64,000 bases of DNA from Massospora cicadina (lineage: Eukaryota > Entomophthoromycota > Entomophthoromycetes > Entomophthorales > Entomophthoraceae). A program made the translations under genes and the position numbers. The notes below the pieces were generated by a model that was given only the letters and a program-made list of their open reading frames with translations, made no database searches and had not been told where the DNA came from. Positions within the stretch are counted from its first letter, which is position 1, and each line of letters begins with the position of its first letter. Where the stretch lies: contig JAKSZP010009306.1 of assembly GCA_022478985.1 (NCBI GenBank), forward strand, positions 1 through 64,000. The letters run 5' to 3'. This document shows, piece after piece, positions 27,815 through 60,481 of this stretch.

Positions 27815-28095
27815 GCGAGGATACCCCAGTGGTAGAATAGGGACCTCTACCACTGCCTCCCCTAGTTCGATTCTGGTATGGGAACTTTGGGTAAGGACAA
27901 TTATGACTGTGTTAGTGCTGCGCACCAATGCCCAAAACTGAGATAGCAAATATAAAAGGTGGTACATGGAGCTCCTGGCCTATCATACGCCATGCATGGT
28001 GGTTTTCCAGATTTTATACTCCTTCACATTCATTTGATTTCCCACTAATCAGTGCAGTAACATCCCCAGGTCATCCTACCTTGAATAAAATTATA
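27815..28095 (+). mobile_element. SINE-1, tRNA-derived SINE with LINE-type 3' tail
   Basis: 281 bp inserted in the gag of Ty3-3 and flanked by an 18-bp target duplication, AGTCATACTCAAAAGAAG (27797-27814) and AGTTATACTCAAAAGAAG (28096-28113), one mismatch. The 5' 60-70 bp resemble a tRNA, closest by eye to tRNA-Gly: GCG start, CCCAGTGGTAGAATAG (D-arm) and AGTTCGATTCT (T-arm). A body of about 170 bp follows. The 3' end ACATCCCCAGGTCATCCTACC then TTGAATAAAATTATA matches the ends of LINE-1, LINE-2, GO-1 and GO-2. This is the classic layout of a SINE that borrows a partner LINE's tail. Confidence 0.88.
27822..27874 (+). promoter_or_regulatory. SINE-1 internal RNA polymerase III promoter (A and B boxes)
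   Basis: The A-box region lies at about 27822-27841 (TACCCCAGTGGTAGAATAG) and the B box at 27864-27874 (AGTTCGATTCT, against the canonical GGTTCGANTCC). The B box has two end changes, so activity is doubtful now. Spacing is tRNA-like. Confidence 0.65.
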
Positions 28096-29000
28096 AGTTA
28101 TACTCAAAAGAAGAATCAACTTACTGGATGTTGTGTCTAGATTGACCATGGAGGAAATGATGTAACATTAATTCTCTACAGGATCAAATATGTCAGCTCT
28201 CACATCAAGTTAAAAGAGTGACACATGTACCAAAAAGACCGAATATAAAGTTCCTTGGTATATGTCATTATGCTATTAGAGGCCTCCACCTTCAAACCTA
28301 CATTCAAGGATAATTTTACACCTGGATAAATTAAAGTTCGCATCTTTTTTCTATGTTTTTGAAGCTTTAAAGGAAAGTGCAACTGAAAATCAAAAGGCTT
28401 ACATGCCCCAACTTGTTTAAGATGCATGGCTCAAGAGGTTATGGTACTCAATTAGACCTGTATACTTGGAGAGAATTGAAGGAAGTGCTCATTAAAGAAT
28501 TCAGGTTAGAGAAAAGCTTGAGTATAAGAAATATGCCTTTATGAAAATCACATTATGCCAAAATAAAACACCGGTAAAACCGAAGATTTTTTGTTAAGCC
28601 ACAAATGCTGTTGACATCAAAAATGATTACAATAGATGATGCTATAGTCACCATCATCGCTGGTTAAATTAGTAACATTGACTTAAACATGCAAACACAA
28701 TAATAATATGAAGTTTCAACTCAGCCTAAGACGTTAGATAAAGCCCTAATCAATTTAGTTGAAATACAAAAGCCGTAGATCTGCCAAAAGGCCTCCATAA
28801 AGCACAGAGTGTATAATGTGGAGGAATCAAATCCTATTATGGAGAAAGGCCAAGCTGTAACTACTATAAAAAGAACAATCATATTGAGGATATTTGTTTT
28901 AAGAAGAATCCTGCCTTGTCAAGCAAGGTTAAGGAAGGTCGGCTTAGGGTCAGGTACCTCTTAAGTTGACTATCCTAAAGCACCTGAAAAGCGATACATT

Positions 29001-30230
29001 GACAAGTATTAATCTCACGAGAATTAGAAATGAACCTGATGAAGACTCTGAAGAGGATTAAGAAAAGCTCAAGTTGTAATATCTTTGGTTACCCGCTGAG
29101 CTTGTCATTCTAGATTGCTTGAAAGCCAAGAAAATTGCTAACTACTAGGTTCCTGAAGGCACTTACCCCAGTCCGATTATTGAGTGCCCCAGAATAATTG
29201 AAACAGCCAGTGATACGGATCAATACTTGGTTTGTTAATATCATTTATTTTAAAAGGTCACAAGCTACTGAAGCCATGAAAATTATTATTAGACTGCCCA
29301 AAAGCACAATGCAACGTCCCTCATTATTGAGGAGTTAGCTACCACTGAAATTAGAGGCACCATAATAAAACGGAAGTGGTAATTCAAATATTCCAAATTA
29401 AGGCTATCTTATATAGGGATCACTTATAAATGCTGTAACGTCAACCTCATCAAAAAGAAAAAGATCGCCCATGACCTCAAATACACTTAGATTATAGCAC
29501 CAGTCCAAACAATTCCAAGGCAATAGGTGCATACTCATATCTGCCATTTTGAGTTGGAAGATTTAGTTTTCTCAGTTTCCGCAATTGTCATGTATAATAT
29601 CTAGTATAACTTACTTTTAGGTTGCAGTATATGAATATATATGAAGGAGTTATCAAACTGAAAGAAGGATAATTATCACTCCTCAACTATGAAGTTCCCC
29701 TTATACTAAATAACAAATCCTCCAAGCAAGATGATTACTCTTGTCTGGGTAAGTATTTTTCCGCTTTACCTTTGCAATACTCTACCTTGGCAAAATACAA
29801 AAAAGCTACCTGACCTAGTAGATGCAGCAAAGGGCTTACCATTTTATGTCACTAAGGAGGTAAATTTAAGCCATGAGAACAAAGAGTGATTTCTACCAAC
29901 ATACCCATAAGTACACCCCAAACTTCTTGCTACATATCACTAGGGGTCAATTGAGTAAATAGTTTTAAACCATATGTTTTTCTAAGATCCCTGAATAAGC
30001 CTACTACTGTCCTATTGTGCTACTACTTGGGAGCCTAATCAACCAAGATATCTTGGTCAAAAAAACATTAAGTTTTACTGGAGAGGTCATTGGCATATTA
30101 TTAATGGAATTGACAATGTACATTTTGACGGTACTCATAATGATTTTGGCCTACCCACTAAAAACTTAACTTGCACTATCCCTTAAGTCCACATAACCAA
30201 ATAAGTTAAATCAGTAAAACTTGATAAAGT
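29001..30230 (+). pseudogene. Ty3-3 protease and linker remnant
   Basis: Reading across frames, plus-strand segments match the order seen in Ty3-6: ELATTEIRGTII-like (about 29335-29365), DLKYTQIIAPVQTI-like (about 29475-29515), a ICHFELEDLVFSVSA segment (about 29540-29580) parallel to the CFRELILKATAVA of Ty3-6, and the linker FDGTHNDFGLPTKNLTCTIP (about 30123-30183) leading to HQLLKDYQDVF at about 30233. No protease DTG is readable and stops are frequent. Confidence 0.65.
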
Positions 30231-31090
30231 GCATCAATTACTCAAAGACTACCAGGATGTTTTTTTACGTAAGATGCTGATTATGGTCACATGAAATACT
30301 AGACACATAGTTGTGATTTAGGAGATTCAGCATCTATCTGGTTAAAGCCATACTGGAAGTCAAAGGTTGAGGAGCAATATATGAAGGCTAAGCTTATATA
30401 ATTATTGATTGCTGGCTTACTTGTGCCCTCCCAGAGTCCATGGTCATCCCCCCTGTTACTTAGAAAGAACTATAATGTTGGTCACAGGATTGTGGATATT
30501 ATTAGAAGCTAAACAGCCTCACTAGTAGGACAGCTATCAATTTAAGAATTAAAAATTTTCTCTGGCCTGACTCATTGGCTTAAATTACTTCTCTGCGATG
30601 GACTTCACTAGTGGTTATTGGCAGATGTATCTATCACTATAAGACCAAGAAAAATGTTGTTGATATACACGGAAAGATTTTCCAATTTACCTGGTTTCCT
30701 CATGAATTATTCAACGCTCTCACTTTGAGCCAATGTGGATGGATCACATCATGAAAGATCTTAAATTAGTCTGTGTGATTGTATACCTAGATGGAATAAT
30801 GGTATTTTCTATAACCTTTACTAATCATCTAGACCAACTTGAGTCAGATTTTTTACAACTGAGTGAGAACCACATCAAATCAATACCTGCAAAATGTACC
30901 TTCTTTTAGTAGAAACTGGGATTTTCAGGACATGTCATAATTCTAGGAATAAATTCAACCCTTGTAGAAGAGGTTAACACAATCTCCAATATGCATGAGC
31001 TGACGAATCTCTGTGACATACAGATATTCTTAATAATGTTAAGGATATTAACACAATATTATCTTCTAATTTTGCTTAACTTACTGAACC
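30231..31090 (+). pseudogene. Ty3-3 reverse transcriptase remnant
   Basis: LLKDYQDVF starts the domain. LIAGLLVPSQSPWSSP (about 30405-30455, frame-shifted) is the fingers approach, NYFSAMDFTSGYWQMYLS motif A (about 30585-30640), and motif C reads CVIVYLDGIMVFS (about 30772-30813), with the second Asp of YLDD changed to Gly. The thumb has NHIKSIPAKCTFF and LGFSGHVI (30868-30945). Stops and frameshifts occur between the motifs. Confidence 0.8.
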
Positions 31091-31454
31091 TCTTGTCCGC
31101 TTGCTTGCCAAATATACCCCTTTCATTTGTGGTGTAGAGATAAGATATAAATTTAATACCATGAAGGATTATTTAAGGAAAAGACCTATTTTGCACCATC
31201 TGGACTTTGGGAAGCCATTAACCTTGTTTATTAACGCCTCTAAATTATCTGCATGCGCTTTTTTTTTCAAATATAAGAATAAGGAATGGACCCTCTGAAG
31301 TCTTATTAAAGCAATACGCTTTTCCAAATCTGAGTGAACTTATAGCTTTATGAAGAAAGTGTGCTTTGCTTTTCTCCTGGAATTAAAACTTTTTAAGCTC
31401 ATTATGTGCTTATGAACTTTACAATTGTTACAGACCAAGTAACTTTAAAGTTGA
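31091..31454 (+). pseudogene. Ty3-3 RNase H, first part
   Basis: Contains RPILHHLDFGKPLTLFINASKL at about 31180-31245, where the catalytic Asp of the usual TDAS is Asn, then FMKKVCFAFLLEL (about 31350-31385) and FTIVTDQVTLKL at about 31420-31453. At that codon Ty3-6 is inserted. The C-terminal remainder, beginning NMKD, is at 37968. Confidence 0.8.
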
Positions 31455-32179
31455 TGTCTGAAATTTAGTAGTCTGATGTATTAATAAGAGTGGTTCAGAG
31501 GTGCACATTGAAATTATTGGCCAAAAGACCCTGGCAATTCCTGGTGTAACCCCTCAAATTGAGTAACTCTTCTACTAACACTTCTCAGGCAAATAGCATG
31601 AGTTTTGTAGTTGAATTGCACTGTTATGCGGCGAAATCAGGGGAGGCCATTGGGTTCTTCCCCAGACCACTTCTAATTTAGTACAACCTACACTGAAAAG
31701 ACTGGGCCCATTTATAGGGTTGGAAGGTGTCCAGCAAGGCTAAATTATTTTTTTGCCCCATGGTTAGATAATTTAATAAAACCTTACCTCACGGGTTTAT
31801 CTTACCTGTCATTGATCTCCATCAGCCGTTACATCAAAGTGAAGTGAGTCTCAAGAGATCCAATAGGTTAAATCCCAATATTTGCTAATATGGATTCTTG
31901 GCCTGATCTGAACTTTGAGCCTTGAGATTATTATCTATTAAGCACTGAGTTATTGAGAGAATTGCTTTTGACCCCAACAATATCACCAATGAAAAACACA
32001 TATGAAACCAAACTGCGTTTTTCAGGTATTTAAATTCTCTCATTTTATTCTTCTTGTGATAATTAAATTCCCGTTTTTATAATAGCAGTAGAGAGTTATT
32101 ATACTTCCTTTCCTGCTGAAATTTTCAGATCCTGTAAAATTAGTATCAGCAAGCGTTAGCCATTGCTAAGATTTTGACA
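31455..32179 (+). repeat. Ty3-6 5' LTR
   Basis: Starts TGTCTGAAATTTAGTAG and ends AAGATTTTGACA. It aligns well with 37171-37967, for example GACTGGGCCC-TTTATAGGGTTGG and ATTGAGAGAATTGCTTTTGA. Confidence 0.88.
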
Positions 32180-32181
32180 AG

Positions 32182-32199
32182 TGGTGCACACTAAAGGGG
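32182..32199 (+). other. Ty3-6 primer binding site
   Basis: TGGTGCACACTAAAGGGG, two bases after the LTR, two mismatches to the consensus. Confidence 0.85.
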
Positions 32200-32229
32200 C
32201 ACTGTGAACCACAATAAAATTTATTAAAA

Positions 32230-33360
32230 ATGGAGTTTAGCGGGGAAATTACCCCACACAACCTCCCCACTTCATCTGATTCTAAAATAGCTGCCTTAGA
32301 ACTACAGCTAGATAGTGCCTTGTCCCAACTTGAAAGAGCTCAAGCTTCACTTCTTTAAAGGCCTTTATGGAGCCTCTCAAACCATTCACAAACCCCCTTT
32401 CAGGGACAAGTTTATACCGGGCAAGGGAAGTATTGAAACCTTCCTCTTTGTATATAAATCTGCGATGGAAGGAGCAACTGACCAGCAAATGCTCAAAACT
32501 ATTCTTCCCTGCTTGTATCATATGTATAATGAGATAATTGTTCCCACTCTAGCCACAATTGACACTTGGGCGGAGGCGAAACTGGCGCTCATTGACAGAC
32601 TTGGCTACCAACAGATTTTAAAAAGGCGCAAAAAGACCTTTATGTGCCTTAGCCTTCAATAGGTCGAAATAATCCCCTCTTTTGTTGAGCGATTTTATAT
32701 TAAAGCTCAACCTCTGTTGCTTGCTATACTGCTACCTCTAGATGATGACATTGCTGCTATAATGGCTGGCTTAGCGTCTCTCCCTCATTTAAAAATGCAT
32801 ATCTCTGCAGTCAAGCGCACCTTTTGAACAGTATGGGATATTAAAGAGGCTCTTCTAGCATTGGCTAATTTCATGAACTTGGACTTATGCAAAGAGCTAC
32901 TAGGAGAGAATCAACTTTTACCCCTCCAGTCACTTTAGTGGCTTTCCCCCTTTGGAACCCTGTTTCACCAGAGCTGGAGTGATGAGATGCTCCCCTACCA
33001 TGTGAGGATAGCCTGAGAATACTAGCAGTTTAAGGAAGCACTTCCCTCTTTCATCAGTTATAAAAACTCATCCATTGTGGTCAGTTATTACTTTTCTTGC
33101 TCTCCTCTTATTTTAAGCGGCCTACTAGGGTGGAGCAAATATCTCGTCCCTCCAAGCCGCTGTCTTGATTCCCTCAGCCTCACCTCAGGCTGCCCCTAGT
33201 TCAAAACCTGAAGTCATGGGGCAGCCTAAACCTGTCACTTCCAAGGCAAAAGTCAAAGCCAATTCCATTCCAACGCCTCCCCAAAAGTTATTAAGGTGGA
33301 GGAGCAACCCCAGGACTTATTATACCATCAAGGAAGCCCTGAACTTACCTCACAACTGAT
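32230..33360 (+). pseudogene. Ty3-6 gag remnant
   Basis: An ATG at 32230 opens MEFSGEITPHNLPTSSD and then a short heptad-like stretch (LELQLDSALSQLERAQ). After a frameshift near 32360 the capsid follows in 32315-32662: KPPFRDKFIPGKGSIETFLF and WAEAKLALIDRLG, matching KPPLRDKYTSGEGSISSFLY of Ty3-7. A further frame gives SFVERFYIKAQPLL and DIAAIMAGLASLP (32690-32785). The C-terminal part up to 33359 is Pro/Ser/Lys-rich. I did not find an intact zinc knuckle. Confidence 0.8.
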
Positions 33361-33439
33361 GGACTCTATGACGTGCATCAATAAACCTCCTATGACAAGT
33401 GTGAAGGGGATTGGGAAAAATTGTCATTATGTTTTATTC

Positions 33440-34530: not shown

Positions 34531-34534
34531 AACT

Positions 34535-37170: not shown

Positions 37171-37967
37171 TGTTGGATAACTACAAGTTCAATGTATTTT
37201 GAGAGTGGGTTGGAGGTACACAATGAAAATATTGGCCGAAAAGCCCCTGGTAGATTCCTGGTGGAACTCCTCGAATTGGGTAACACTTTTAATAATACTT
37301 TTTGGGCAAATAGCACGAGTTTGGGTAGTTGAATTGCACCGACTATGTAGCAAAATTAAGGGGAGGCCATTGGAGGTTCCTCCCCGGCCCACTTCTAATT
37401 TAGTACAGCCTACACTGCAAAGACTGGGCCCTTTTATAGGGTTGGAAGAGGTCCAGCAAGACTAAGATATTTTCCTGCACCATAATTAGATAAAATATAT
37501 TATAACCTTACCTCAATCTATTATCCAACAAACCATAGCCCTCCATTGGCTATTCCATCAAATCAAAGCGAGATATAAAAGCTCCAATAGTCAAATTCCC
37601 ATATCTACTAATATGGACATTATTAGCCTGATCCAAACTTTGACCTTAGGACTATTAATTACTAAGAACTGAGATATTGAGAGAATTGCTTTTGACCCCA
37701 CCAATATCACTTATAAAAAACATAAATAAAACTAAACCCTGTTTTTCCTAGTATTTTAATTCTCACTTTTTTATATTATTTTGATAATTAAATTCCCATT
37801 TTTGTAATAGCAGTAGAGAGTTTTTATACATCGATGAATCCCCCCTCAGGTTGGGACCATCTAGTACTAAAAAAAGTAGAGAGTTTTTATACTTCTGTTC
37901 CTGCTGAAATTGTCAGATCCTGTAAAATTAGCACCAGCAAGAGTTAGCCATTTCCAGGATTTTTAAA
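37171..37967 (+). repeat. Ty3-6 3' LTR, with a small retroposon insertion
   Basis: Homologous to 31455-32179. It is longer because 63 bp were added at 37830-37892 (46-bp insert plus one duplicated 17-bp target copy). Confidence 0.88.
37830..37875 (+). mobile_element. 5'-truncated retroposon tail in the Ty3-6 3' LTR
   Basis: 46 bp ending CCATCTAGTACTAAAAAAA and flanked by a perfect 17-bp duplication GTAGAGAGTTTTTATAC (37813-37829 and 37876-37892). The 5' LTR of the same element has a single, uninterrupted site. The poly(A)-like end and long duplication indicate target-primed reverse transcription. The same ending occurs twice at 53798-53849. Its full-length source is not in the window. Confidence 0.85.
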
Positions 37968-39012: not shown

Positions 39013-40009
39013 GCTAAGATTATTAAATTTTAAATTTTTAAAGTTTGAATTTTATTCAGAAAAGGCCAACCATAGGATGGACACTTCTTATAAACACCAA
39101 CTACAAAACACTAAGAAAATTGAGAAGCACCCCAAAGGTGCTGTAGCTACCTCCTGTTGCCAGCGAGACTGCCAGTGGAAGGAAGAGGGGGAATTACAGG
39201 GGAGGCATGGGCTGAAACTGAACACAAATGAAGGAAAAGATCAGAAGAGAGAATTAGATGGGGAACCAGGTTATATAAACTGGCATTGGCAGGATGGTAG
39301 GTTGCCAAACAACCAAGCTTGAAAGAGAACCATAAGGTAAGAATGGAATTGATGCACAGCTTCACGTAGGGTTGGGGTAGTGCCAGAGAGTGCATCAAGG
39401 ATAATGGTGTAAATTGTCCACAGCGCTATTGCAACAATTAAGGTGTGGAGCTATGAGTGGATAGGGGAGATCAAGGAAAAAGCGAAGACGTTTTTAGACA
39501 GGCTGAAAGCCTGCTCGCTCTCCTGGCAAAAGAGGCGCATAATATCCTACCAAATTGCCTTTGAAGGTGGGCAATTTTCCAAGCTATGGACTAAAGATCC
39601 ATATTGAACGCACTCAATGCATGAAGTTTGAGAGGAATTGGACCACTCAGCCATGCGGTACACTTTTCTCAGGAATCTCCACACATGGGCGCGAATTTGG
39701 GATTGTAAAAGGGGATGGTGATTGTACTTCCAAACGTCCTTCTGGGTTCCAAAATGTAAGGGATGTCAAGCTTGTCAGATTAGTCCACAGGGCAATGAGG
39801 TGGGTACATTGTGGTACCAGGCTGTTTAAAACTACTTGCCCATTAAATTCTTGTTTGAAACAGGGAGTAGGGCGACCCCTCAGGCGGTGTGTCCACTGAT
39901 GCTGATTCTCTATTCAGCTTTGCATGGAGAGGAGAATTCATTTAATATGGGGCAACGTCCCAAGTGGGCCCGTGGCAGAGGGATTCAAATCAAGATAGTT
40001 AAGCAGAGT

Positions 40010-40023
40010 ATGTGGGTGGGTAG
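40010..40023 (+). repeat. GO-2 target duplication, left copy
   Basis: ATGTGGGTGGGTAG. The right copy at 41116-41129 reads ATGTGGGTAGGTAG, one mismatch in 14. Confidence 0.85.
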
Positions 40024-41115
40024 CCCCTCGTCAACCATTTCTGGAGGATTGGATGACTCATCCACTAACCTCCAATCTGCTGCCCACCCTGTACAATTTC
40101 CAGTATGGGGCACAATCCTCCCTTCCCCCACCCCAAAGCATGTTGCTGCAGCTGCACCTGCAGCTACAATCAGCCTCCTCCCCACACCAATGCCATAAAT
40201 AATTCCTCCAATCAAGCATCGGATTAAATCCCAGTTGAATCATGCTTCCTCAAATGAATCTACCAAACCTCAATTGTACGATGATTCCCCAATCCAATTC
40301 AACCAAATCCCATGGGAATCATTGGCTAAAACTTATGAATCGGGTAAGTTCATTGAAGAACCATCTCTGCAAATTGAGCGGTGTATTAATTCAAAATGTG
40401 ACACTAAATACCCCCTAGATTTCTTACCCCACAGCCAAATGCTGAATCATTTTGCAGTGATCACCAGCTTGCAGTCGAAGCAGCTGCAACACTGGATCGT
40501 CATCCCCTGCATAAAGCTGTCACTAAATCAGTAGCAATACTCAAATGAGGAATTCCACCTCCTGTTATCCCCGCAACCTTAACTCCAAAAAGTAAAATTA
40601 CGGTGAACCAGTATTACAAAAATGCAAACGATGCTATCCAGAATGTGGCACCTATAGCACGAAATCCAAAAAGCAAAAATAACCTTATAAAAACATTTCC
40701 ACATTTGTAAACTCCCAGACGCCTACATTAAAGCTGAAAAGGCTTTAACCGAATATCTCAGTGCCATTTATCTAGCTGGCAATTTCCATGAAATTCCAAT
40801 CATTGGTGATATCAAACCAAATACCGCAGATGCCTCAACGCCATTACTGTTGGCTGTGACACGCACTCTACTATGGGAGGAAGAAGCTGCTGCCAAAGAG
40901 GCTGCTGAAGATGAGCCCCTCAACCCCCCTCCCCTTCCGCTATGGAGGGATAAGCGGCTTTCTCTGCCCACCTTGTTGGTCACTTTTTTGAAGCGTTTCA
41001 CTCAATCCGCTCATTAGGGCGTTTTGTTTGAAACAAGTAGTTAAGTTAGTTTTTGGTATAGTTTTAGCTTTGGTAATGTCCATCCCCTGGTCAGCTTACC
41101 TCAAATAAATATAGA
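40024..41115 (+). mobile_element. GO-2, 5'-truncated ORF1-only retroposon inside LINE-2
   Basis: 1092 bp on the plus strand inside minus-strand LINE-2. It is bounded by a 14-bp target duplication, and LINE-2 sequence is continuous when it is removed. It matches the 3' half of GO-1: Pro-rich linker, SDHQLAV domain, acidic C-terminus, and 3' UTR. The end is TGTCCATCCCCTGGTCAGC followed by TTACCTCAAATAAATATA (41077-41113), the LINE-type tail. It contains no RT or endonuclease. Confidence 0.87.
40060..41017 (+). pseudogene. GO-2 ORF1-like protein, C-terminal part
   Basis: Segments shared with GO-1 are FLPHSQMLNHF then SDHQLAVEAAATLDRHPLHK and SVAILK-GIPPP (about 40425-40570, across two frames), a TVNQYYKNANDAIQNVAPIA stretch (about 40602-40660), and an acidic C-terminus WEEEAAAKEAAEDEPLNPPP ending at the stop TAG 41015-41017. 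The N-terminal RNA-binding region and zinc knuckle of GO-1 are missing by 5' truncation. The function of the SDHQLAV domain is unknown to me. Minus-strand frames at 39985-40243 and 40768-41001 are shadows. Confidence 0.72.
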
Positions 41116-43883
41116 ATGTGGGTAGGTAGGATTTCTGAGGCCCAGGGCGCAGGAAAAATTGGTTTGGGCTGCGCGTGATCAGTGTTGGGCTTAGAGTGTG
41201 GGGTAGGAGAATGCAGTGATACAGGTGCCAAGTACTTTGGCAGAATGGGCCTTGAAGTTGAGCAAGCCCATACTACACTATGGCGAGGGCCAAATATGAC
41301 ATCCAGGAGAACAGGCGATTGAAAGCCTAACCAAAGCCACCCTTTTGGGAGGACTTATAAATAGGTTAAGAAAGAGGAAGAAATGGCGATAGCATGGGCT
41401 ACAAACCAGACTTTGGACAGGAACATAGAGTTGGCAAGTAACCTGGCCTGGGAGGGTAGTCTAGTGGGCTCTGAGGGAAGCGATGCGATTTGCAACATAT
41501 TCTAAGATGTGGTGCTCCATCACCAACGAGGTGTACCCTCCCGCCTCCAGCCACACTCTTAAATGGCATACCAGACCAGCAGTTGGTCTTGGCACAAAGG
41601 GAGCACAAGCGGGACAGTATGAGGTGGGTGGGGCAAGAGAACCTGTGATCTAGCTGCTGAAGCAGTTAGGTAATGGGGTGCTGGTGACCAGTGGGCTTGG
41701 TACCGGCCTAAGAAAGTATAAAGGTTTTTGAGGCGTTAATTGCAGCGTTACTGACCCTGGAGTATTCTTGGATATTAGCTTCAAGTGTGCGTGCATCATG
41801 ATTATTAGACACCCCAACCAAAAAATTATCAGCAAACGCCAACATCATAACTGGTGCTTGGTTTTGCACATGGACACCAGTAAGGCTGGCATTCAAATTG
41901 ATTAAAAGTGGGTTAAGTATAATGTTTTACAAGAGTGGGCTTAAAGGCTCCCCTTAAAGAAGGCCCTTTTGAGGGTACACCACATCAGTGAGGAAGCCAG
42001 GGTAACTCACTGCCATTGTGGCGAATTTAGTAAGCAACATCACCCAATTAATGAACTGATTGGGAAGGTGGAACTTGTGGAGGCAGGCTTTGAGGTAATA
42101 CAAGTTGACCCTATCATGAATCTTCTGATGATCTAAGAAAACCAGAACTCCAGTAGCCCTGGATTGGCAGACGTTCGCTACAGTGTGCATGTTGTCCCAT
42201 ATAGATCGCTTGAAAATGAAAAGGAACTGCTTAGAGGAGATTATATCAGAGGCAACTTCCCCTAGGCGGTTGATCATAATTTTAGTAAATAAATTAGTAT
42301 CTGTGTTATTAAGTGATATGAGGCGCCAGTTAGCCAAGTCCAGCTTATCCCCTTTTATGTACAGTGTTATTGTTACGCCTCCTGGCCCCCAGGAAGGAGG
42401 CGCTTTTCTAACAGACACTGGTTCATTGAGGTTAGCAACAAAGAGGAGAAATAATTAAAATATCTCTTATAGAGCTCATATGAGCCCATCTGGACCTGGG
42501 CATTTCCTGTGCGGTACACCATTAACGGCATACCAGAGTCCTGATGAATTAAATTATTTAACTCTGAATAATGAAAAGGTGCAGATATGTGCACTATCGA
42601 GAAATTCTTCTACTTCAGCTGGTACAACTGAATTGAATTAGTACAATTCGGGGTAATAGTTTTAAATTTTGATTGTCACTTTGACTAGAGTTTCTGTGAA
42701 GGAGTGGTATGGCCGTCTCAACTGTGTTCAGGTCAAGCTCAGTTGCAGTGCAAAAAATTTTCATAAAAAAGAGCTGATCATGTGTTGCCCGCCATTAATT
42801 TTTGCCTTAAACTGAACACAAATGCAATGTTTTTGTTGCCTTACCTTTGCGTTGAGATGAGCAGACAATTCTGCCCACTTGCGACCCCAAGCCAGGCTGA
42901 AGCCTGCAGTAGGGAATTAGACTACAGATGGTCCACTTCTGCAAGCATGAGCTTAATGACCGCTGAGGCAGCCTGAGAGTGACATGATGAGAGATGGCAT
43001 GCCTGACGGATGATAGTCACTTTGAAAGTTGACCAGGTGTAAATGGTCCACACAGAATGGTGTGGCGAGCTCCAGTGCAGAAGTTTTGGTGTCCACCCAT
43101 GAGGAAAACCTGGGAGACGTGATCTCAGTTGGACGAAGTTTAAACTACTTCGTTGCCTGTGCCTCTGGTTTTAACAAAGAGAAGGAAATTGACACCAATC
43201 TGTGGTCAGAGAAATCAAATTTTGTCTTTGTGAAGTGCACAATCTGGGGGCGAAAGTTTGACGGGCAAGAAGCTAGGTCAATGTAAGACATAGACCTCAG
43301 CTGACCGTTGTCACATGTGGATGTTACATGTTGAAGAACAGCGGTGCATTTTTGGGGAGGGCATTAACAAGCCTCAAAGTGGCTTTTATAATGAGTAGTT
43401 CTGCATACCCCTGTGGGAGGTAAGCTTAGAAGGCCAGCATTTGGTGGCCAGTGTGCCGAGAAGTTCATGTCACCCACCACAAATTGAACATACGGAAGTG
43501 GGAGTGAAGTTATGGCTGAGAGGAATTCCCAGCAAGCCCGTGCACAGGTCAGGGCATAAATATTAATAATAGTGTGCACTTTGTCATCCCACAAAAAGGA
43601 CACCACAAACACATGGCATTGAGGTATGAATTTTCAGAAATAAACTTAAAATTACAGGTCACGCATAAAAGCACCCCACAGTGCAACGACCAAAAGGAAA
43701 GGGAGGGTAGGAGCATGGTTGACCATGTTTCCTTAGCACTGTGTGGACAGTGGGTTTCCTTAATGGCCATGATGTCCACAGGTAACCTAAATTTTATGAA
43801 ACCCAGTTTTCTAGCCTGGGATGGCGAGGCCTTGGGTCCAGCGATGTTCAACGTCCCTATTGTGAAGGCTCCCCCATCACACC

Positions 43884-45330
43884 TTAGGTGCAATGGGAAG
43901 GGACCTCTTGCTATCCTTTGCCACTTTCTCAGCAGCAGTTTTGACCGCATATTTATTTGGGTACGAGGTCTTGAGGAATTCTCTCACGCTGAGTTTATTT
44001 TTTGTTTTTGGAGCTTTTTTTAGACTTAGCTTAAATTTTTGAAACGGTGTGGTCCTGCGGTGCATCATCAGAGGTCAACAAAAATTTGGGAGGGAAATGG
44101 GTGAAAGAATCAGTTTCAATTAGTGCTTGGTAATTTTGCTTGGGTAAATCAGACTCACCTATCTGGTCCACAGGTAAGTTGGCCCAATCCGATTGGTGAG
44201 CTGATTCTTGAGCTGCCTCAGCTGCAAATGACTCAATGTCATCCTGGGTCTAGGCAGGTGGGATCACAGACGTGGCCATAGCTGCTGCCTTGGCTGCTGC
44301 TCTACAGGCCTGTTTGGCCTTCTTGCGCTCCAGTGGGGACACAGGTTTAACCTGAATATAACACCCCTACATGCCCAATGGGAAGGCGGTGTCAAAGTCA
44401 ATGGCGGGTTAATAATTGAAGTCTGCACTGCCCATTGCATCGGGGAAAATTTCATGTTGAGTGATGCCCTCTCTAGAAGAGCATGTGTGCATCTTTTGGC
44501 CAAAAGCGTGACAAAAGGTGCAGATAGGGGGCACTCTATCACTGTGATGCTTAATGGGTGGTATTTCTGCCCATCAATATCCACAACAAAAATGTGGGGG
44601 ATTTGGGTAAAGTCTTCCATGATGACCGCGGTTGTTGTGATCACTGAAATCTCTTTGCCTATGCACAGGTCCAGCATAAGCATAAAGCATTTTATTTCAA
44701 AGGAGTAATGTTCCCCATAGTTTTTAATCCCAACCATGAGATGGTGGTCCAGAACTGTGCGCTTTATCGTTGTGGGGGAGAAAGTCAAAAATTACAAAAA
44801 ATGATTTAATTTGGTTCAGCAAGTGCACTTCATCTTGACCGCCCGTTAACCATCTGGGAGGTCTACCACTACACGCATCAGTGCAGCTTTATCCACTGCT
44901 TTTTTAGGGTCAAACCTGAGATCCAACCAACTATGGGTCAGAGAGTGTGGTGCAACATATACTGCGTTAGGGAAGTGTTTATGCACATCTCCACAGAACT
45001 TTTCCCAAAGCGCCGTTTGGTTAATATTAAGTAAATTTAAACCCAATGCTCCACTAATGACATGGGCTGGGAATGCGGAGTTTTGACGAGCTGGATGCAT
45101 TTTGCTCACCAGGCTAAATTCTTTGGGGAAATACTCAACACCAGTTTTTTTCTTATCTAGGCCGCTGGTGTCTCCAGGGCGTTTACAAACTTTAGATGGT
45201 GTGAAGCCCAATCCTTTTCCCTTTACTTTGCTAGCCCAACTGCTATACAACACTGGGTGCACACTAATCTCCTCAAAGAGATTATCAAACTTAACTAGTC
45301 TTGAATAGAATTCGTTGCAAATAATGATTG
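43884..45330 (-). pseudogene. LINE-2 ORF1 (gag-like, CCHC)
   Basis: RNA-binding protein of the LINE. From the N-terminus: FDNLFEEISVHPVLYSSWAS (about 45300-45235), QTALWEKFCGDVHKHFPNAV, VAPHSLTHSWLDLRFDPKKA and RVVVDLPDG (to 44846), then a decayed middle. The zinc knuckle at about 44525-44485 reads CTFCHAFGQKMHTC, with the expected His replaced by Gln. A KPVSPLERKKAKQA segment and a basic C-terminus follow. It ends at the stop 43886-43884, 6 nt before ORF2. No catalytic role expected. Confidence 0.8.
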
Positions 45331-45351
45331 CAAAGAGAGAGAAAAATTAGT

Positions 45352-45779: not shown

Positions 45780-46439
45780 TACCTCAATATATAACCCAGT
45801 ATAATGATACTCATTATGACTTAAATCAACCTAAGGAAAGTTTTGTCAAACCAAATTGAGTCTAAGATACAATAAGATGAAATTATGCCTAATCAAAATG
45901 AAGGATCATCAGAAAGTCAGGTGTTAATTACTAAAGGCTGCACTCAAGGCAGTAAATTAAGGCAAACACAAAAAAGGGTTGATAATAAGAATCTTTTCAA
46001 TGATTAACCTAAATGATACCAGTTCTAATCTGACTTAGTTCATTCAACTTGCTATTTGCCCTATTAAAATAATCTTCAAAAGGCATTATACCATCCAGAA
46101 TGCATCGCTTAACAAAGAGCCTCTCTTCCAAATTCCCCTACATTTTTTATTAATCCTTTTTCTTTTATAATCTATATTGTTATATGAGACATATAAGCCC
46201 CCTATTTTATACTATAATAATTAATCGTCTTTATTACTATACCTTTTTTGTTACTTGACCTCAATAATCCTATTTTCTGTACTTACCCTAGGACGGATAC
46301 TATAGCTTATGGAACATAAGAAGTGACTTGGCACCCTATAAAATAAATAATATACTTATCTTGGGTCTTAGATGTCTAAAAATATTGGCTTGGTCTTCTT
46401 TATCATAGCACCATAGAGCTTAAAAGTGGAAGCCCAACA
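45780..46439 (+). repeat. Ty3-3 3' LTR
   Basis: Homologous to 9735-10403. Ends GGAAGCCCAACA. The divergence from the 5' copy is among the highest in the window, in keeping with Ty3-3 being the host of all other insertions. Confidence 0.8.
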
Positions 46440-48332: not shown

Positions 48333-49084
48333 TGTGGGAATCCAGCTGTTTTTTTCTCGCTGTTGCTGATGGGTGCTTGATACACAAAAGGGTTTTAAAT
48401 AGTAAAAATTTAAGAAAAATTAAACAACCAAAAAAATGATTTTTTATAAGGTTTATTAGTGTCAATGTGGGGTAAAAAATGAACCCTCTTGATATCAGAC
48501 TGGTTAGTATCTAAACTTTGTTGAGGGTCAAAGGTAATTTATTGATAAGATTGGAATGGCTTGTTACCATATTAATAAGGAAATATGTAAATCCAACTTA
48601 TCAAAACTTGGAAAATTTCATCTTATTTTAACTGAAAGACCAATGGGGGGTTTTCTTAGGTAAGATGTACCCATGGGTTATCGATTTAATATATTTTAGC
48701 CATTCCCCATTAGTGAAAATTATTGCATCTTGGTGGACCCACATCCAGCCTATAAAGGGGTGTGGTCCCTGCTTAGGTGTTTGCTTTGTACTTGATGTGC
48801 CCAAGGAGGAACCTCCAATGGACTCCCTTGTTTTCTCTCATGGCTGGGGCAATCCAACAGCCAGATTTAGTGGCATTTGCCCTTTTTATATACATAAAGG
48901 TTTTACCCTGATTTGAGGGGTTCCACCAAGAGTTGGACAGGGTCTTTTGGCCGATATTGTCATTATTTTTGTTCAGAGCCATATTGAGAGATCAGAAATT
49001 TATTTCGCTATCATATTTGGGGAGTCAGAACTATTCTTACCTACAATTTTCTTTTTCTGAAGTTGAGATGAGAATTGTCTGACA
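48333..49084 (-). repeat. Ty3-7 3' LTR
   Basis: On the minus strand it starts TGTCAGACAATTCTCATC (49084) and ends GATTCCCACA (48333). It aligns with 53940-54686, including GGGGGTTTTCTTAGGTAAGA and TGTACCCATGGGT on the plus strand. Confidence 0.9.
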
Positions 49085-53916: not shown

Positions 53917-53934
53917 CCCGTGTAGTGAGCACCA
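53917..53934 (-). other. Ty3-7 primer binding site
   Basis: Minus strand TGGTGCTCACTACACGGG, 5 bp after the LTR end as I place it. Confidence 0.85.
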
Positions 53935-53939
53935 CTTTG

Positions 53940-54686
53940 TGTGGGAATCCAGCTATCTTTCACTCGCTGGTGCTGATGGGTGCTGGATCCACAAAAGGGT
54001 TTTAGTTAGTAAAAAATAAAAACTCAGATAACCAAAAAGTTGATCTTTTAACTGGTTTATTAGTGTCAAAGTGGGGTAAAAAAACCCTCTTGAAATCCGA
54101 CTGGTCTGTATTTAAACTGTAACAAGGGTCAAAGGTAATTTACTGATAAGTTTAGAATTTCTTGTTACTGTATGAATAAGGAGGTATGTAACTACAACCT
54201 ATCAATGCTTGGAAAACTCCTTTTACATTGACTGAAAAATCAATTGGGGGTTTTCTTAGGTAAGATGTACCCATGGGTAACGATTTGATATATTTTAGTC
54301 AATCCCCATTAGTGAAAATTGTTACATCTTGGGGGACCCCCATCCAGCCTACAAAAGGGGGTGGTCCCTGCTTAGGTGTTGGCTTTGGACTTGATGTGGC
54401 CTGGTGAGGAACCTCCAATGGACTCCTCTGGTTTTCTCACATGGCTAGGGCAATCCAACTTCCCAATTTAGTGGTATTTGCCTATTCAATATTCATAAAG
54501 GTTCTACCATGATTTGTGGTGTTCCATCAAGGATCAGCCAGGGCCTTTTGGCTAATATTGTCATTACTTTTGAGCAAAACCATATTACTATAAGATTAGA
54601 CATTTAATTGGCTGATTATATTTGTGGAGTCATACTATTCTTACCTACAATAATTTTTGTTCAGTCAAGATGGCAATTGTCTGATA
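53940..54686 (-). repeat. Ty3-7 5' LTR
   Basis: Partner of 48333-49084. The start on the minus strand is TATCAGACAATTGCCATC, with the terminal TG changed to TA. Confidence 0.9.
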
Positions 54687-55196
54687 ACCTTCCATAATTG
54701 TTAAACTATGGACACTTTACCTTAAACTTCTATAGCAATAGTATCAAGGACTAAGTAAACTTTGTTAAATTTCAGCAGAAGGAGTCCAATCAAGAGGCGA
54801 TAAAAGGCATAATTGTCTAGATGAAGGCTATATAGCTAAGCATGTCACCCATTTTTCCAGACAAGACCTGCCAATGACGGATAAATCAGGTTTATATGTC
54901 CAAAAGCCAGTAATATATCTTCAGCATCTAGTGTTCCAGCAAGACGTAAATGAGATGACCCAATCAATTCTTAAGGGGATAAACTTTGAGTTTATAAAAG
55001 TCACTTTATCCCATTTACAGCAATTACTTAAAGCGGTGAGAAATGCTGAAGTCGATGGGAGTTGCAGTAATCCAATTTAATGACATATATTTCACTAACC
55101 CATGTAATGCTATCTATAATTGCCTCCTGATATTTCATTAAACTTATTCACATCCTATAATCATCATATGATGCTGCTATCTTCTATGTATTCAAC
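54687..55196. other. unassigned sequence between Ty3-7 and LINE-1
   Basis: About 500 bp. The plus-strand frame at 54874-55080 (68 codons) has no recognisable motif. It is probably part of the same old DNA as 60494-61200, from which LINE-1 separated it. Confidence 0.35.
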
Positions 55197-55208
55197 ATAT
55201 CATTACCC
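55197..55208 (+). repeat. LINE-1 target duplication, left copy
   Basis: ATATCATTACCC, identical to 60482-60493. Confidence 0.93.
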
Positions 55209-55249
55209 ACTTTTCTTTCTCGTTGCAATCACTATTGCAACCTACTTAA

Positions 55250-56711
55250 TTCAAGACTGAATCTAATTTGATAATCTCACAGAGGAGATTAGTCTGCGCC
55301 CATGTCAGGGAGCAGTTGGGCAAGCAAGGTAAGAGGAGCAGGTGGAAGGCCCGCGGCCTCCAACATTCGAAAACGCCCCGAAAATCTGGCGGAATAGACA
55401 AAAATCTTAAAAAACTGGTGGTCATGATTTCCCCAGAGATACTTGTATGGCAAGCACGATGCAACCAGTACATCAACATGCCACACTCCCAACCACTTTC
55501 ATCGGTGGAATTCAGAGTCTGCGTGTATCTGGACATCCAAAAAACGGCCTTATGGGAAAAATTTTGTGAAGATGTACACAAAATTTTCTGAACGCGGTGT
55601 ATGTTGCACCTCACTCCATGTCATGCAGTTGGCTGGATCTAGGTTTTGAGAGCAAAAAAGCAGCAGATGAGGCTGCAGTGGTACGCGTAGTGATCGACCT
55701 CCCTGAAGGGCAATGGGTCATTGACCAAATACACCAGATGGACAAAATAAAACCAAATTTTCCTCAAGTTTGACTTTTTGCCTACTACGGTAAAACGTGA
55801 CATTTTGGAACAACACCTGAAAGATGGTCTCGCCGTATACAGTGATATACAATCTTTTGAAATGCAACACTTCACACTGATGCCACACCTGTGCACCGGC
55901 AAAGCCATTGCAGTCCTGACCTAAATGAGGAGATTGCAAAGGATCTAACCCAGATTTCGCACTCCACTTTTATTGATATCGCAGGGCATACCACCCACCC
56001 ATTCTGGGTGACCGTGGACAGCGCGCCCCCCAATTTCACCCACTGTGATGCGTTTGGCCACAAGGCGCACGCATGCCCCATCAAAGAGGGCGTTACATTC
56101 CAAGAGCACCCCTCAGCGGCCATGGCCAACGGAGAGGCGCATTACAAACCATCCTCAAGCACCAAGGAGGCTTTCCCGTGGGGAGCACAAGGCTGCTACC
56201 TATTGGTAAAGCCTATCTCCCCACAAGAATGGAAGAAGGCTAAGCAGGCCATAGGGCCGCAGCCAAGGAAATGACCAAGGCCACCACCGCCATCCCACAC
56301 TCACAACGCCAGGAGGACATGGAAACCTTTGCAGTGGAAGCAACTCAGGAATCCATCAACCAAACAGATTGGGAAGCCCATGCTGAGTGGGCCACTCAAT
56401 CTGAGGATCCAATGGGAGATTTGATCTCACCCAATCGTTGCACCCAAGCTCCGGTTGAAACTGATTTGGGACCTATCCCAAATAAAAAAAATTTTTTTGA
56501 CCCGCTCAACGGTGCACTGAACTCATCTGCACCGCAAAAAATTCGTCTGACGTCGGGAAAACAAAAAGCGAAGGCCAAAGCCAACGCGACTCTTTCTGCA
56601 AAAATCAACAAAAACTCCGATAGCATTGCTGCTAACACCCACGCTGCTGTGAAAGCACGTGGGGACCTAGAAGAGGCTGGTGGGCCCAGGGGCCCACCCC
56701 CTCGCACCTAA
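55250..56711 (+). pseudogene. LINE-1 ORF1 (gag-like RNA-binding protein)
   Basis: From the N-terminus: QKTALWEKFCEDVHKIF (about 55540-55590), PHSM-CSWLDLGFESKKAAD and RVVIDLPEGQWVIDQI (55611-55735, shifted frame), a decayed middle, FIDIAGHTTHPFWVTVD (55970-56020) and the knuckle region FTHCDAFGHKAHAC (56034-56075). That is a CCHC knuckle whose first Cys is Phe (compare CPSC in GO-1 and CTFC in LINE-2). KPISPQEWKKAKQA follows, a frameshift near 56265, then the C-terminal frame 56271-56711 with a basic Lys/Ala-rich end. It stops at TAA 56709-56711. The start codon is not certain. LINE-2 suggests it lies near 55250. Confidence 0.85.
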
Positions 56712-56720
56712 GGTGCGATG
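56703..56720 (+). promoter_or_regulatory. ORF1 stop / ORF2 start hairpin
   Basis: CGCACC, TAA, GGTGCG, ATG: a perfect 6-bp stem whose loop is the ORF1 stop codon, followed at once by the ORF2 start. LINE-2 keeps the TAA, the 6-nt spacer and the ATG (43886-43875, minus), with a weaker stem. It suggests termination-reinitiation for ORF2 translation. This is an inference. Confidence 0.55.
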
Positions 56721-59700
56721 GGGGAAACCTTCACTTTAGGGACATTGAATATCGCCAGACTCAAGGCCTCCCAGTCCTGGGCTAGGAAACTGAGTTTTTT
56801 ACAACACAATTTACCTGTGGATATCCTGGCCATCCAGGAGTCCCACTGTCCATGAGGTTCCATGGAAACTTGAAAAACAATGCTCCTCCCATCCCTATCC
56901 TTTTGGTCGCAGCACTGTGGGGTGCTTATTTGGAAAAATAATTTTTTCAAATTCAAATCCTCAGAAACATTCTTAAATGGCCAAGTGCTCATCGTCACCT
57001 TCTCATGGGCTGATGTGGCACACGCAATCATCAACATCTATGCCCCAAACGGTGCACATGAGCATCAGGAATTTTTTCTTGTTGGTCAAATCCCTCCCGC
57101 TACCCCCTGATTCCTTCATAGTTGGCGACATGAACTGTTGGCTAACCTCACCAACGGACTAGTGGCCTCCATCACCCCACACCCCACATGGTCACGTTGA
57201 ACTACGCGTTCATAAAGCCACCCTTGGGTTAATGGATGCGCTGCTGCAACATGCCCCACTGCACAAAAACATGATGTGTCCCCACATCCACAACGGCCAA
57301 TTAAGGTCCATGACCCGCATCGACCTTATTCTATGCTGGCGAAATTCCAACCCCACTTCTACTTCAAAACAACGAAAATGGAATTCTCTGACCACCAACT
57401 GGTCTCAATAACATACCACCTACCTGTCACAGTTGCTAAGGCCCCACATTGGTGCAAAATCTGCCTGCAAGCTCGCGTCGCCAGGATTTTCCATGTGGGT
57501 GGAAGAGGCAACTTTGGCAGAAAATTTTGTTGCACTTTTTTGCGCGGACCCCATTTCCACATAGGCAACTTTCAAAGAGGACACCATCTGCCACTCTCGC
57601 CATCTCTCCTCCAGATGCTCATGAGCCACATTGGCGGTTATCTCGCGCGCTCTGGCAGAATTGGCACACTTGGAGTCCAACATTCCAGCCACAGGATACA
57701 GCCCTGCATGGTGCCAGAAGTGGGCGGAGGCAGCCGCCCACCTCAATGCACTTGAAAGGCAACACAAACATCGGGTTTGTGTTCAATACAGGGTCACATG
57801 CATCACTAAAGGTGACAAGTGCACCACATATTTCTTTAAAAAAATTTCGCACCACGCCAGAGCGTGGCCTGCACACAGGTGCAAAGATTAGATAATTCTA
57901 TTGCAGATACACTGACTGAAGTGGCAATCAAAATGCAAAAATATTACTCCGAGTTGTACTGAGCCAAACCAATTCAGCCAGCCAAGGTGGCAGAATTTCT
58001 CGACTGATCTCATATCTGCACCATTTTCCAATACCCAGTAATAATGAATTTAATTACTCCGAATGAATTATGGACAGCCATTCGTGGTGCGCCAAACCAA
58101 AAATGCCCAGGCCCAGATGGCATTCCATATGAGTTCTACAAAAAAAATTTCAAATATATATCCCCACTTCTGCTTGCCTCACTTAACCAAAGCCTGTTGG
58201 AAACGCGCCTCCTACCAGGAGGACATGAGGCCTTTACTGTCACACTCTTCAAGAAAGGGGATAGGCTAGACTTAGCCAACTGGCGCCCCATTTCTCTAAC
58301 AAACACAGACACCAAAATTCTAACAAAAATCATGGCTAACCGTTTAGGGACTGTAGCATCTGCCACCATCTCCCCAGAACAATTCGGTTTCATCCCCAGA
58401 AGGTCAATTTGGGATAATGTGCACACTGTGGCTAATGTATGTCAGTCCACAGCCTCTGGGGCACTTGTATTCTTGGACCAACAAAAGGCTTATTATAGAG
58501 TAAACTGGGAATACCTAAGGGCCTGCCTCCATCAATTCCGCCTACCTCCTCGCTTCATCAACTGGGTGATGCTGCTCACGGAATCTTCAACAATGGCAGT
58601 GCGTGGCCCTGGCTTCCTAACGGAAGTAGTCCACCCTCAAAGGGGCTTGCGACAAGGGGACCCCCTCAGCCCACTCTTAAACAACTTCAGCCTTGACCCA
58701 CTACTGCGAAATGTGAATGCCCAACTCACTGGGGTCCATGTGCCAGGCCAAGCCCCAGTCAAAAATATTGGCGTTTGCAGATGATTGTGTGGTTTGGGTG
58801 TCTGATAATCAAGATGCACGCGCGCTTGAAGATCTCATCCAGGAATATTCCCGGGTAAGCAACGTGGCACTGAACGCCTCCAAAACCAAAGTCATCCTCC
58901 TTGGTCAGTTTCAGAACTGCTGGGCCCCAGCAATTAGTTCCCAACCTGGCCTATCTGCTCGCCCACGTCCACGCCTTACTAACTCAACACACACTGCTCC
59001 ATTGATGCTCCCCTTTGTGCCACGCCCTACCATAGGACCGGTGCGCCATCTGGGCATGTGGATAGAGGCAGGCGGATACGATTCAGCAGTAATGGAGTGC
59101 CATATTATGGACAACATGACGAAGCGAATCGCCTCTCTCAGAGCCCACCCTACTTCCCTTACTGGCAAAGTTGTTTTAGCCAATTCTATGCTCCTATCCA
59201 AAGTCTGGTTTGGAGCCCACGCCATCCCCTTCTCCCCAAGCTTCTTCAATTCCCTGTATGCCTTACTGCAAGGATGGCTTTGGTCAGGCCGCCCTCCACC
59301 AGTGCATCTAGAGGTCATGTTTGGCCCTCATCATCATGGTGGCATGGGCTTGCTTGACTTCAAAGCCCATGCTGCCAAAATCCTGGGCACCTGGATTACA
59401 GCCGTCACCGCTCCTACACTCCCATCCCAACACTGGTCCCGCGCAGCCCGCTCCAACTTCTCCCAAGCCTTGGGCCTCAACAATCCAACAAACCCCCACT
59501 CCCTGATGAAATACCTCGCATCACACACATCGGCCACAGGTCCTCACGGGACAAAAACCCGCTACAAACGAATCCTACTCTCCATGTGGAGCGCAGAGTG
59601 GAGAATTCGTATTAGTGGACATACAACCCAAAGAGGCCGCCCCTCTCCTCAGTTCACACAAGAGGTACAGGGGCTACCCATCCATGATGGCGTGATCCCC

Positions 59701-60342
59701 ATTTGGCCCCATGTCCTATCCAGGGTGGACTACCTGGACATGATGGACATCACTTATTCCATTGAGACCCAAAAAACAATCTGGAAATATGTACATCACC
59801 CTATGTTGCAGCCTCAAGTCCGCTCCCATGTGTGGCACTGCCTGAGGTGGGTGTATAGTACAGCTGAGCGCTCTAATGCTTTACCCTCATTCTGTGTCGT
59901 GTGCGGCCAATATGGAATTCTGTTTCACTGCCTGGAGAAGTGCCCCACCTTTAAAGTTATATGGCGTGAAGTTCAACGTCTGCTGGGCCAGGATCAAACG
60001 CATCCTTTCAGTCTGTCAAGAGATATATTTGCTCTATCAATGGCCTCCTCCATTCCACCCTCCCTCTGTGCTCTGTTGGTTGCAATCGCCATGTGGACCA
60101 TCCACACGATTGTCTTAGATGCCATCGCAGGCTCCACCCCCACCCTCCCAGAAACTGTCCACAGATTCCGGTCTCATTTGGTGGACCACTTTCAAGCGAG
60201 GATGTTTGGATACCTCCCACAGCGTCACCAACAGCTGGTCTCCTCCTGGTTCCCAATCTGGTTCATCAAATCAGACCCCTTCCTCCACACGTTCTCAATA
60301 GTGGCTACGGCCCCTTCACACATTCCCTCCCCCTCCCCATAA
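56718..60342 (+). pseudogene. LINE-1 ORF2 (APE endonuclease, reverse transcriptase, C-terminal CCHC)
   Basis: About 1208 codons if frameshifts are ignored. The endonuclease nicks target DNA: GTLNIARLK, ILAIQESHC (catalytic Glu, 56825-56852), IINIYAPNG, FIVGDMNCW (57113-57140), RIDLIL and EFSDHQLVSI (57380-57410, catalytic His). A stop follows at 56851. RT: CPGPDGIPYEFYKK (58108), DLANWRPISLTNTDTKILTK, QFGFIPRRSIWDNVHTVANV, ALVFLDQQKAYYRVNW (motif A; the second Asp of KAYDRV is Tyr) and RGLRQGDPLSPLL (motif B). A one-base shift in an A run near 58763-58768 separates this from KILAFADDCVVWV (motif C, both Asp intact, 58762-58800). The C-terminal knuckle CVVCGQYGILFHCLEKC is at about 59898-59944. 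I saw no RNase H. Confidence 0.92.
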
Positions 60343-60434
60343 GTGGCGTTCCCACTGGCAACAAGAGATAGCATCGCTTCTCTGGGGTGCCTCCCCCGGT
60401 ACTAAGTTTATCTGTCCTGAGTCAAATTTGGAAG

Positions 60435-60481
60435 TGTCCATCCCATGGTCGGCCTTCCCCGCAATAAATTAAAATTAAAAT
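60435..60481 (+). other. LINE-1 3' tail, shared with GO and SINE elements
   Basis: TGTCCATCCCATGGTCGGCC then TTCCCCGCAATAAATT and AAAATTAAAA. Cognate ends lie at 39026-39082 (LINE-2, minus), 17091-17134 (GO-1), 41077-41113 (GO-2) and 28057-28095 (SINE-1). Likely the recognition site of the LINE reverse transcriptase. Confidence 0.8.

What the first reader, a model, noticed from the sequence alone, without database searches (positions are those of the whole stretch)
27815..60481. A LINE, an ORF1-only element and a SINE share one 3' tail
Five elements of three structural kinds end alike. LINE-1 (60435-60481): TGTCCATCCCATGGTCGGCC, TTCCCCGCAATAAA. LINE-2 (39026-39082, minus): TGTCCATCCTATGGTTGGCC, TTTTCTGAATAAAA. 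GO-2 (41077-41113): TGTCCATCCCCTGGTCAGCT, TACCTCAAATAAA. GO-1 (17091-17134): CCTGTTACCCTGGTCAGCAT, ACCTCGAATATAT. SINE-1 (28057-28095): AACATCCCCAGGTCATCCT, ACCTTGAATAAAA. Tail sharing between LINE and SINE is known for stringent LINE families. Here the same tail also serves a protein-coding, RT-less element. The inference is one LINE machinery with two tiers of parasites.
Basis: partly seen in the sequence, partly recalled or inferred. Interest (0 to 1): 0.87.

Follow-up and report, generated by a model that had tools for sequence, protein, structure and literature searches.

The report
Three retroelement kinds, one hairpin tail
In 64 kb of an unidentified genome, two decayed LINE retrotransposons, two copies of a protein-coding element with no detectable reverse transcriptase, and one short tRNA-like element all end in closely similar tails of about 40 bases, which are predicted to fold as a hairpin and likely let a LINE enzyme copy all three kinds.

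Summary
All five tails lie at element ends. The ends are fixed by clear target-site duplications for LINE-1, GO-2 and SINE-1, by an interrupted Gypsy element for GO-1 (seen with one of three Gypsy copies compared), and by homology to LINE-1 for LINE-2. GO-2 sits inside LINE-2, and LINE-1 shows the unoccupied site. The tail holds a 5-bp stem with three pairs changed on both sides. A model built without the SINE ranks the SINE tail first among non-training hits (E 0.13, weak alone, but exactly at the SINE's end).

New here: GO-1 starts with the LINEs' 5' motif too, and the SINE tail is GO-type at 6 of 6 positions that separate GO from LINE, so "one LINE, two tiers of parasites" is too simple. 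GO's protein is conserved between its copies; its kinship to the LINE's ORF1 protein is only suggestive.

Tail-sharing LINE/SINE pairs, hairpin-tailed L1-clade LINEs and ORF1-only elements (HAL1, HeT-A) are known. The threefold sharing is a new variant; the listings of eight answered paper searches showed no report of it. The genome-wide test was not run: the genome search was unanswered in 16 tries.

The parts
55209..60478 (+). LINE-1, full length, decayed frames (ORF1 with zinc-knuckle-like motif, reverse transcriptase), L1-clade-like
   Evidence: Ends from target duplication; RVT_1 E 1.8e-26; best solved relatives human L1 ORF2p
55194..55208 (.). LINE-1 target duplication, 5' copy (3' copy 60479-60493), 14 of 15 identical
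60429..60468 (+). LINE-1 tail; predicted stem arms 60430-60434 and 60454-60458
39023..45345 (-). LINE-2, 65-67% identical to LINE-1 in three aligned stretches, interrupted by GO-2; both ends uncertain by a few bases
   Evidence: blastn; 5' start like LINE-1's; duplication not above chance
39050..39089 (-). LINE-2 tail
40024..41112 (+). GO-2, no detectable reverse transcriptase, inserted in LINE-2 on the opposite strand; probably 5' truncated (inferred from GO-1's length)
   Evidence: Target duplication 40007-40023 / 41113-41129, 15 of 17 identical; LINE homology breaks at 41113/41114
41071..41109 (+). GO-2 tail; predicted stem arms 41072-41076 and 41096-41100
15204..17133 (+). GO-1, about 1.9 kb, inserted in a Gypsy reverse transcriptase region; probably full length; 3' end uncertain by a few bases
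   Evidence: Similarity to the Gypsy copy near 22.9 kb stops at 15203 and resumes at 17145; two other Gypsy stretches gave no clean break; protein shared with GO-2
15204..15213 (+). GO-1 5' motif TTTTCTTTCT, also at LINE-1 55211-55220
   Evidence: Two exact places on both strands of the window, which are these two; LINE-1/GO-1 5' alignment reached by 2 of 1000 shuffles
17086..17125 (+). GO-1 tail
27815..28094 (+). SINE-1, tRNA-like head with box A-like 27822-27832 and box B 27865-27873
   Evidence: Target duplication 27796-27814 / 28095-28113, 18 of 19 identical; boxes by pattern, box A with a relaxed third position; not called by ARAGORN or Rfam
28055..28090 (+). SINE-1 tail, GO-type
   Evidence: Held-out model hit; 6 of 6 diagnostic positions GO-like in a hand alignment

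Best explanation
LINE-1, LINE-2, GO-1, GO-2 and SINE-1 end in one shared tail of about 40 bases that is predicted to fold as a hairpin, and this tail is likely the handle by which an L1-clade LINE reverse transcriptase picks up the RNAs of all three kinds for target-primed reverse transcription. Shown: the shared tail at element ends; clear target duplications for three of the five; covariation in one stem; no detectable reverse transcriptase in GO; a GO protein conserved between its two copies; a shared 5' motif in GO-1 and LINE-1. Inferred: that the tail is the recognition signal, that one LINE family (perhaps a GO-type-tailed subfamily outside this window) supplies the enzyme, and that GO descends from a LINE that lost ORF2. 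GO would then be the stringent-tail counterpart of HAL1 or HeT-A, and the SINE a non-coding passenger that took its tail from GO or from GO's partner LINE.
For: Tail scores above all shuffles in six of ten pairs. Within GO-2 the only DNA match to LINE-1 at E 0.01 is the tail (41069-41110). GO-2 is nested in LINE-2 with a 17-bp duplication, LINE-1 being the unoccupied site. RNAalifold finds the outer stem unprompted; 3 of its 5 pairs change on both sides and 19 of 20 cells pair in the four rows counted. It is the only one of 225 5-bp placements with at most one broken cell; 28 of 20000 column permutations do as well with three double changes. Held-out SINE hit; SINE against GO-2 and GO-1 cores reached by 6 and 9 of 8000 window places. 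GO-1 and LINE-1 share the 5' motif. GO coding: protein score 234 against at most 47 in 96 null tiles; codon-position mismatches 34/27/49 of 75. Reverse transcriptase closest to human L1 ORF2p among solved chains. Hairpin-tailed L1-clade LINEs and tail-sharing SINEs are established (PMC3747384, passages).
Against: Only five copies, one window. RNAalifold's consensus energy is only -0.22 kcal/mol with no covariation term, and single-strand folds are mildly better than shuffles at best (z -1.1, -1.2, -1.9, -0.8, +0.5). In one search, 42 of 500 shuffles reach the number of double-changed pairs and 280 of 500 the number of pair types. 2791 of 20000 column permutations give some stem with at most one broken cell. 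GO-1 breaks one outer pair and SINE-1 two of five; the inner hairpin is whole only in the two LINEs. LINE2/GO1 tails alone are not above chance. Duplications of GO-1 and LINE-2 are not above chance. GO-ORF1 homology is unproven. No Pfam match to the expected APE endonuclease in the LINE-2 piece that covers its start.
Confidence: 0.62

Rival explanations
1. Plain descent: GO is an old deletion derivative of the LINE, and its tail is kept by inheritance and as a polyadenylation region, not because the enzyme needs it.
For: All five tails carry AATAAA or AATATA; GO-1 shares the LINE 5' motif too.
Against: DNA similarity of GO-2 to LINE-1 is confined to the tail while the stem covaries; the SINE, which shows no other match in the window, carries it too.
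Confidence: 0.2
2. GO and SINE belong to another LINE subfamily, with GO-type tail, absent from the window; LINE-1 and LINE-2 are cousins that mobilise neither. This is compatible with the mechanism above and differs only in the partner.
For: SINE and GO share 6 of 6 positions against both LINEs; the two best tail pairs are within type.
Against: LINE1/GO2 still match at 31 of 39 positions, as many as GO2/GO1.
Confidence: 0.4
3. The SINE tail is a chance match.
For: E 0.13 in the held-out search; LINE1/SINE reached by 13 of 500 shuffles, LINE2/SINE by 36 of 500; SINE fold not better than shuffles.
Against: Best non-training hit on both strands of the window and exactly at the SINE's 3' end; above all 500 shuffles against both GO tails.
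Confidence: 0.08

Closest known systems
Stringent-type LINE/SINE pairs, including plant and algal L1-clade LINEs (maize ZmSINE2/3, Chlamydomonas SINEX-3_CR)
   Same: SINE shares its 3' end with a LINE; L1-clade LINE; 3' hairpin with compensatory changes (PMC3747384, passages)
   Different: Here a protein-coding element without detectable reverse transcriptase carries the tail as well, and the SINE tail resembles that element more than the LINEs
HAL1 (half-L1) of mammals
   Same: Non-autonomous L1 derivative that encodes only ORF1p (PMC5753468, passages)
   Different: Mammalian L1 is thought to use poly(A) rather than a specific 3' end (PMC3747384, passages); GO's ORF1 kinship is unproven
HeT-A with TAHRE/TART of Drosophila telomeres
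   Same: Gag-only non-LTR element that lacks the transposition enzymes and resembles a complete partner, TAHRE (PMC5537684, passages)
   Different: GO-1 and GO-2 lie inside other elements, GO-2 with a target duplication; no SINE partner is mentioned in the passages I saw

Membership tests
L1-clade LINE (LINE-1, LINE-2) | L1-type reverse transcriptase | tested here: met
   RVT_1 E 1.8e-26; human L1 ORF2p ahead of R2 proteins among 11 solved sequences matched; no tree was built
L1-clade LINE (LINE-1, LINE-2) | APE-type endonuclease upstream of the reverse transcriptase | tested here: inconclusive
   No such Pfam hit in the LINE-1 and LINE-2 pieces scanned; motif TLNI...ETH seen by eye against recalled L1 sequence
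L1-clade LINE (LINE-1, LINE-2) | Target-site duplication | tested here: met
   LINE-1 14 of 15; LINE-2 not above chance
tRNA-derived SINE (SINE-1) | Pol III box A and box B in a tRNA-like head | tested here: met
   Patterns at 27822 (relaxed at one position) and 27865; ARAGORN and Rfam do not call a tRNA; box consensus recalled
tRNA-derived SINE (SINE-1) | Target duplication and LINE-like 3' tail | tested here: met
   18 of 19 duplication; tail held-out hit E 0.13
tRNA-derived SINE (SINE-1) | Multiple genomic copies | not testable with these tools
   Genome search did not complete; only itself in the window by blastn
HAL1-type ORF1-only element (GO) | No reverse transcriptase | tested here: met
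   No Pfam match in five pieces scanned (three at E up to 1; two at E up to 10); the first 365 bases of GO-1 were not scanned
HAL1-type ORF1-only element (GO) | Protein homologous to the LINE's ORF1 protein | tested here: inconclusive
   hhalign E 0.015, probability 3% at the HPFW-knuckle stretch; E 0.41 for a second piece; LINE-1 exceeds all 96 null tiles but at another place, LINE-2 is matched by 6 of 96
HAL1-type ORF1-only element (GO) | Coding constraint | tested here: met
   Mismatches 34/27/49 at codon positions 1/2/3 over 75 codons; dN 0.55, dS not computable
Stringent-tail LINE | 3' hairpin required by the enzyme | not testable with these tools
   Covariation only

The most novel reading that the evidence does not exclude
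A three-tier retroelement economy: the LINE supplies the enzyme, GO supplies an RNA-binding protein of its own and its own version of the hairpin handle, and the SINE copied its handle from GO rather than from the LINE, making it a parasite of a parasite.
Probability: 0.2. Interest if true: 0.75.

Novelty: new variant of a known kind. Interest (0 to 1): 0.52.

Why it matters
If true, it gives one natural system in which cis preference, ORF1 need and 3' hairpin recognition can be pulled apart: a complete element, an element with a protein but no enzyme, and an element with neither, all on one handle. It would also extend ORF1-only or gag-only elements, known from poly(A)-using mammalian L1 and from Drosophila telomeres, to a hairpin-tailed L1-clade LINE.

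Tried and rejected
Tried without result: protein search with the LINE-1 ORF2 C-terminus (none of 7995 scored candidates at E 1e-3); protein search with the C-terminal half of the GO protein (none of 1992 candidates at E 10); LINE protein and tail pattern in IMG/VR (no relative, no match); Rfam and ARAGORN on the SINE head. GO-1/SINE similarity upstream of the tail (a shared CATTCATTT) was rejected: 469 of 1000 shuffles as high. The first stem count used a wrong partner column; one search is the corrected one. In the alignment the SINE's 5' stem arm fell in a gap, so the counts leave the SINE out of the outer stem; its 3 of 5 pairs come from a hand alignment, as do the six diagnostic positions. 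A poly(A)-signal-only explanation was rejected as sufficient, because the similarity extends about 30 bases upstream of AATAAA. Of three Gypsy stretches used to bound GO-1, one gave a clean break; the other two aligned both flanks to the same stretch and ran past 15203.

Literature: eight answered searches, seen as listings with the starts of abstracts; two searches found no paper with the terms asked. Passages were read in three papers. Ohshima 2012 is not held. PMC5135761 was seen as a listing only. The HAL1 paper of Bao and Jurka was seen only as a reference.
Full report
Observation. The five tails exist as quoted. Pairwise scores exceed all 500 dinucleotide shuffles in six of ten pairs; LINE2/GO2 (8 of 500), LINE1/SINE (13 of 500) and LINE2/SINE (36 of 500) are weaker and LINE2/GO1 (294 of 500) is not above chance. 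Over the 41-column hand alignment LINE-1 matches GO-2 at 31 of 39 ungapped columns, as many as GO-2 matches GO-1.

Element ends. LINE-1 is 55209-60478 with a 15-bp duplication (14 identical). SINE-1 is 27815-28094 with a 19-bp duplication (18 identical). GO-2 is 40024-41112 with a 17-bp duplication (15 identical). GO-2 lies on the opposite strand inside LINE-2. Similarity of LINE-2 to LINE-1 breaks at 41113/41114 and resumes on the other side of GO-2, and the same spot is unoccupied in LINE-1. This places GO-2's 3' end at its tail independently of any tail comparison, and shows that GO-2 landed after LINE-2. GO-1 interrupts a Gypsy reverse transcriptase: similarity to the Gypsy copy near 22.9 kb stops at 15203 and resumes at 17145; two other Gypsy stretches tried gave no clean break. 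Its duplication, like LINE-2's, is too decayed to beat random place pairs.

What the elements are. LINE-1 and LINE-2 are 65-67% identical in three aligned stretches, with broken frames. The reverse transcriptase gives RVT_1 at E 1.8e-26, and its best solved relatives are human L1 ORF2 proteins. Its three best database relatives are unnamed, at 45-53% identity over 72-90% of the query; the organism is not identified. LINE-1's ORF1 has a zinc-knuckle-like motif (E 0.013, below Pfam's cut-off). GO-1 and GO-2 share a protein (104 of 296 aligned positions identical, with nine frame shifts; 0 of 96 null tiles as high) with excess change at third codon positions (34/27/49 mismatches in 75 codons). 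No homologue of its C-terminal half and no Pfam family in five pieces was found. Its kinship to the LINE ORF1 is suggestive: an HPFW motif nine residues before a CX2CX4HX4C knuckle in GO-1 lines up with the LINE profile (hhalign E 0.015 but probability 3%), although LINE-1 lacks the first cysteine and LINE-2 the HPFW. The frameshift-tolerant alignment of LINE-1 with GO-1 exceeded all 96 null tiles but chose a different place, and LINE-2 with GO-1 was matched by 6 of 96.

A shared 5' end. GO-1 starts, right where the Gypsy similarity ends, with TTTTCTTTCT. The only other exact copy on either strand of the window is two bases into LINE-1; LINE-2 has it with one mismatch. Over about the first 60 bases LINE-1/GO-1 reach a score met by 2 of 1000 shuffles, LINE-2/GO-1 by 66 of 1000. 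GO therefore probably shares both ends with the LINEs, as expected of a LINE-derived passenger.

The predicted hairpin. RNAalifold on the five tails finds an outer 5-bp stem, though with a consensus energy of only -0.22 kcal/mol. In the four rows with letters on both sides 19 of 20 cells pair and 3 of 5 pairs change on both sides; for outer and inner stems together 85% of cells pair, against 22.5-52.5% in slid versions. Of 500 shuffles 1 reaches the paired cells and 1 the covariation score, but 42 reach the number of double-changed pairs. The outer stem is the only one of 225 possible 5-bp placements with at most one broken cell. Of 20000 column permutations 2791 give some stem that whole and 28 one with three double changes as well. 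Against it: single-sequence folds are only mildly stable, GO-1 loses one outer pair and SINE-1 two, and four or five related sequences are few.

The SINE. A covariance model made without it places SINE-1 first among non-training hits on both strands of the window (E 0.13, next E 1), exactly at the SINE's 3' end. At all six columns where both LINEs agree against both GOs, the SINE has the GO letter (6 of 6, hand alignment); the paired columns 4 and 29 are among them. So the SINE took its tail from GO, or both go with a LINE subfamily that is not in the window.

How it likely works. By analogy with stringent LINEs, whose 3' ends are needed for retroposition and shared with SINEs (PMC3747384, passages), the LINE enzyme would bind the tail hairpin and start reverse transcription at a nicked target. 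GO would use the enzyme in trans while making its own protein, as is argued for HeT-A, which lacks the enzymes (PMC5537684, passages), and as its coding capacity suggests for HAL1, which encodes only ORF1p (PMC5753468, passages). The recognition step and the trans step are inferred, not shown.

Novelty. Each part has a precedent. The threefold sharing and a SINE tail of GO type did not appear in the listings of my eight answered searches, in a library that lacks most subscription papers.

Noticed in passing
15204-15213 and 55211-55220: GO-1 and LINE-1 share the 5' start TTTTCTTTCT; these are its only exact places in the window.
   Followed up: yes
18323-18772 / 25170-25622, 31653-32175 / 37375-37963, 48333-48802 / 53940-54401: Three pairs of direct repeats at 5.6-6.9 kb spacing, likely the LTRs of three Gypsy-type elements.
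   Followed up: no
9774-9934 and about 45815-45975: A 162-bp repeat at 80% identity lies about 0.5 kb outside the 5' end of LINE-2 and near 9.8 kb; nature unknown.
   Followed up: no
15965-16045: GO-1 carries HPFW-x9-CPSCFNMDHPKCKC, a CCHC-like knuckle spaced from HPFW as in LINE-1's ORF1, which has lost its first cysteine.
   Followed up: partly
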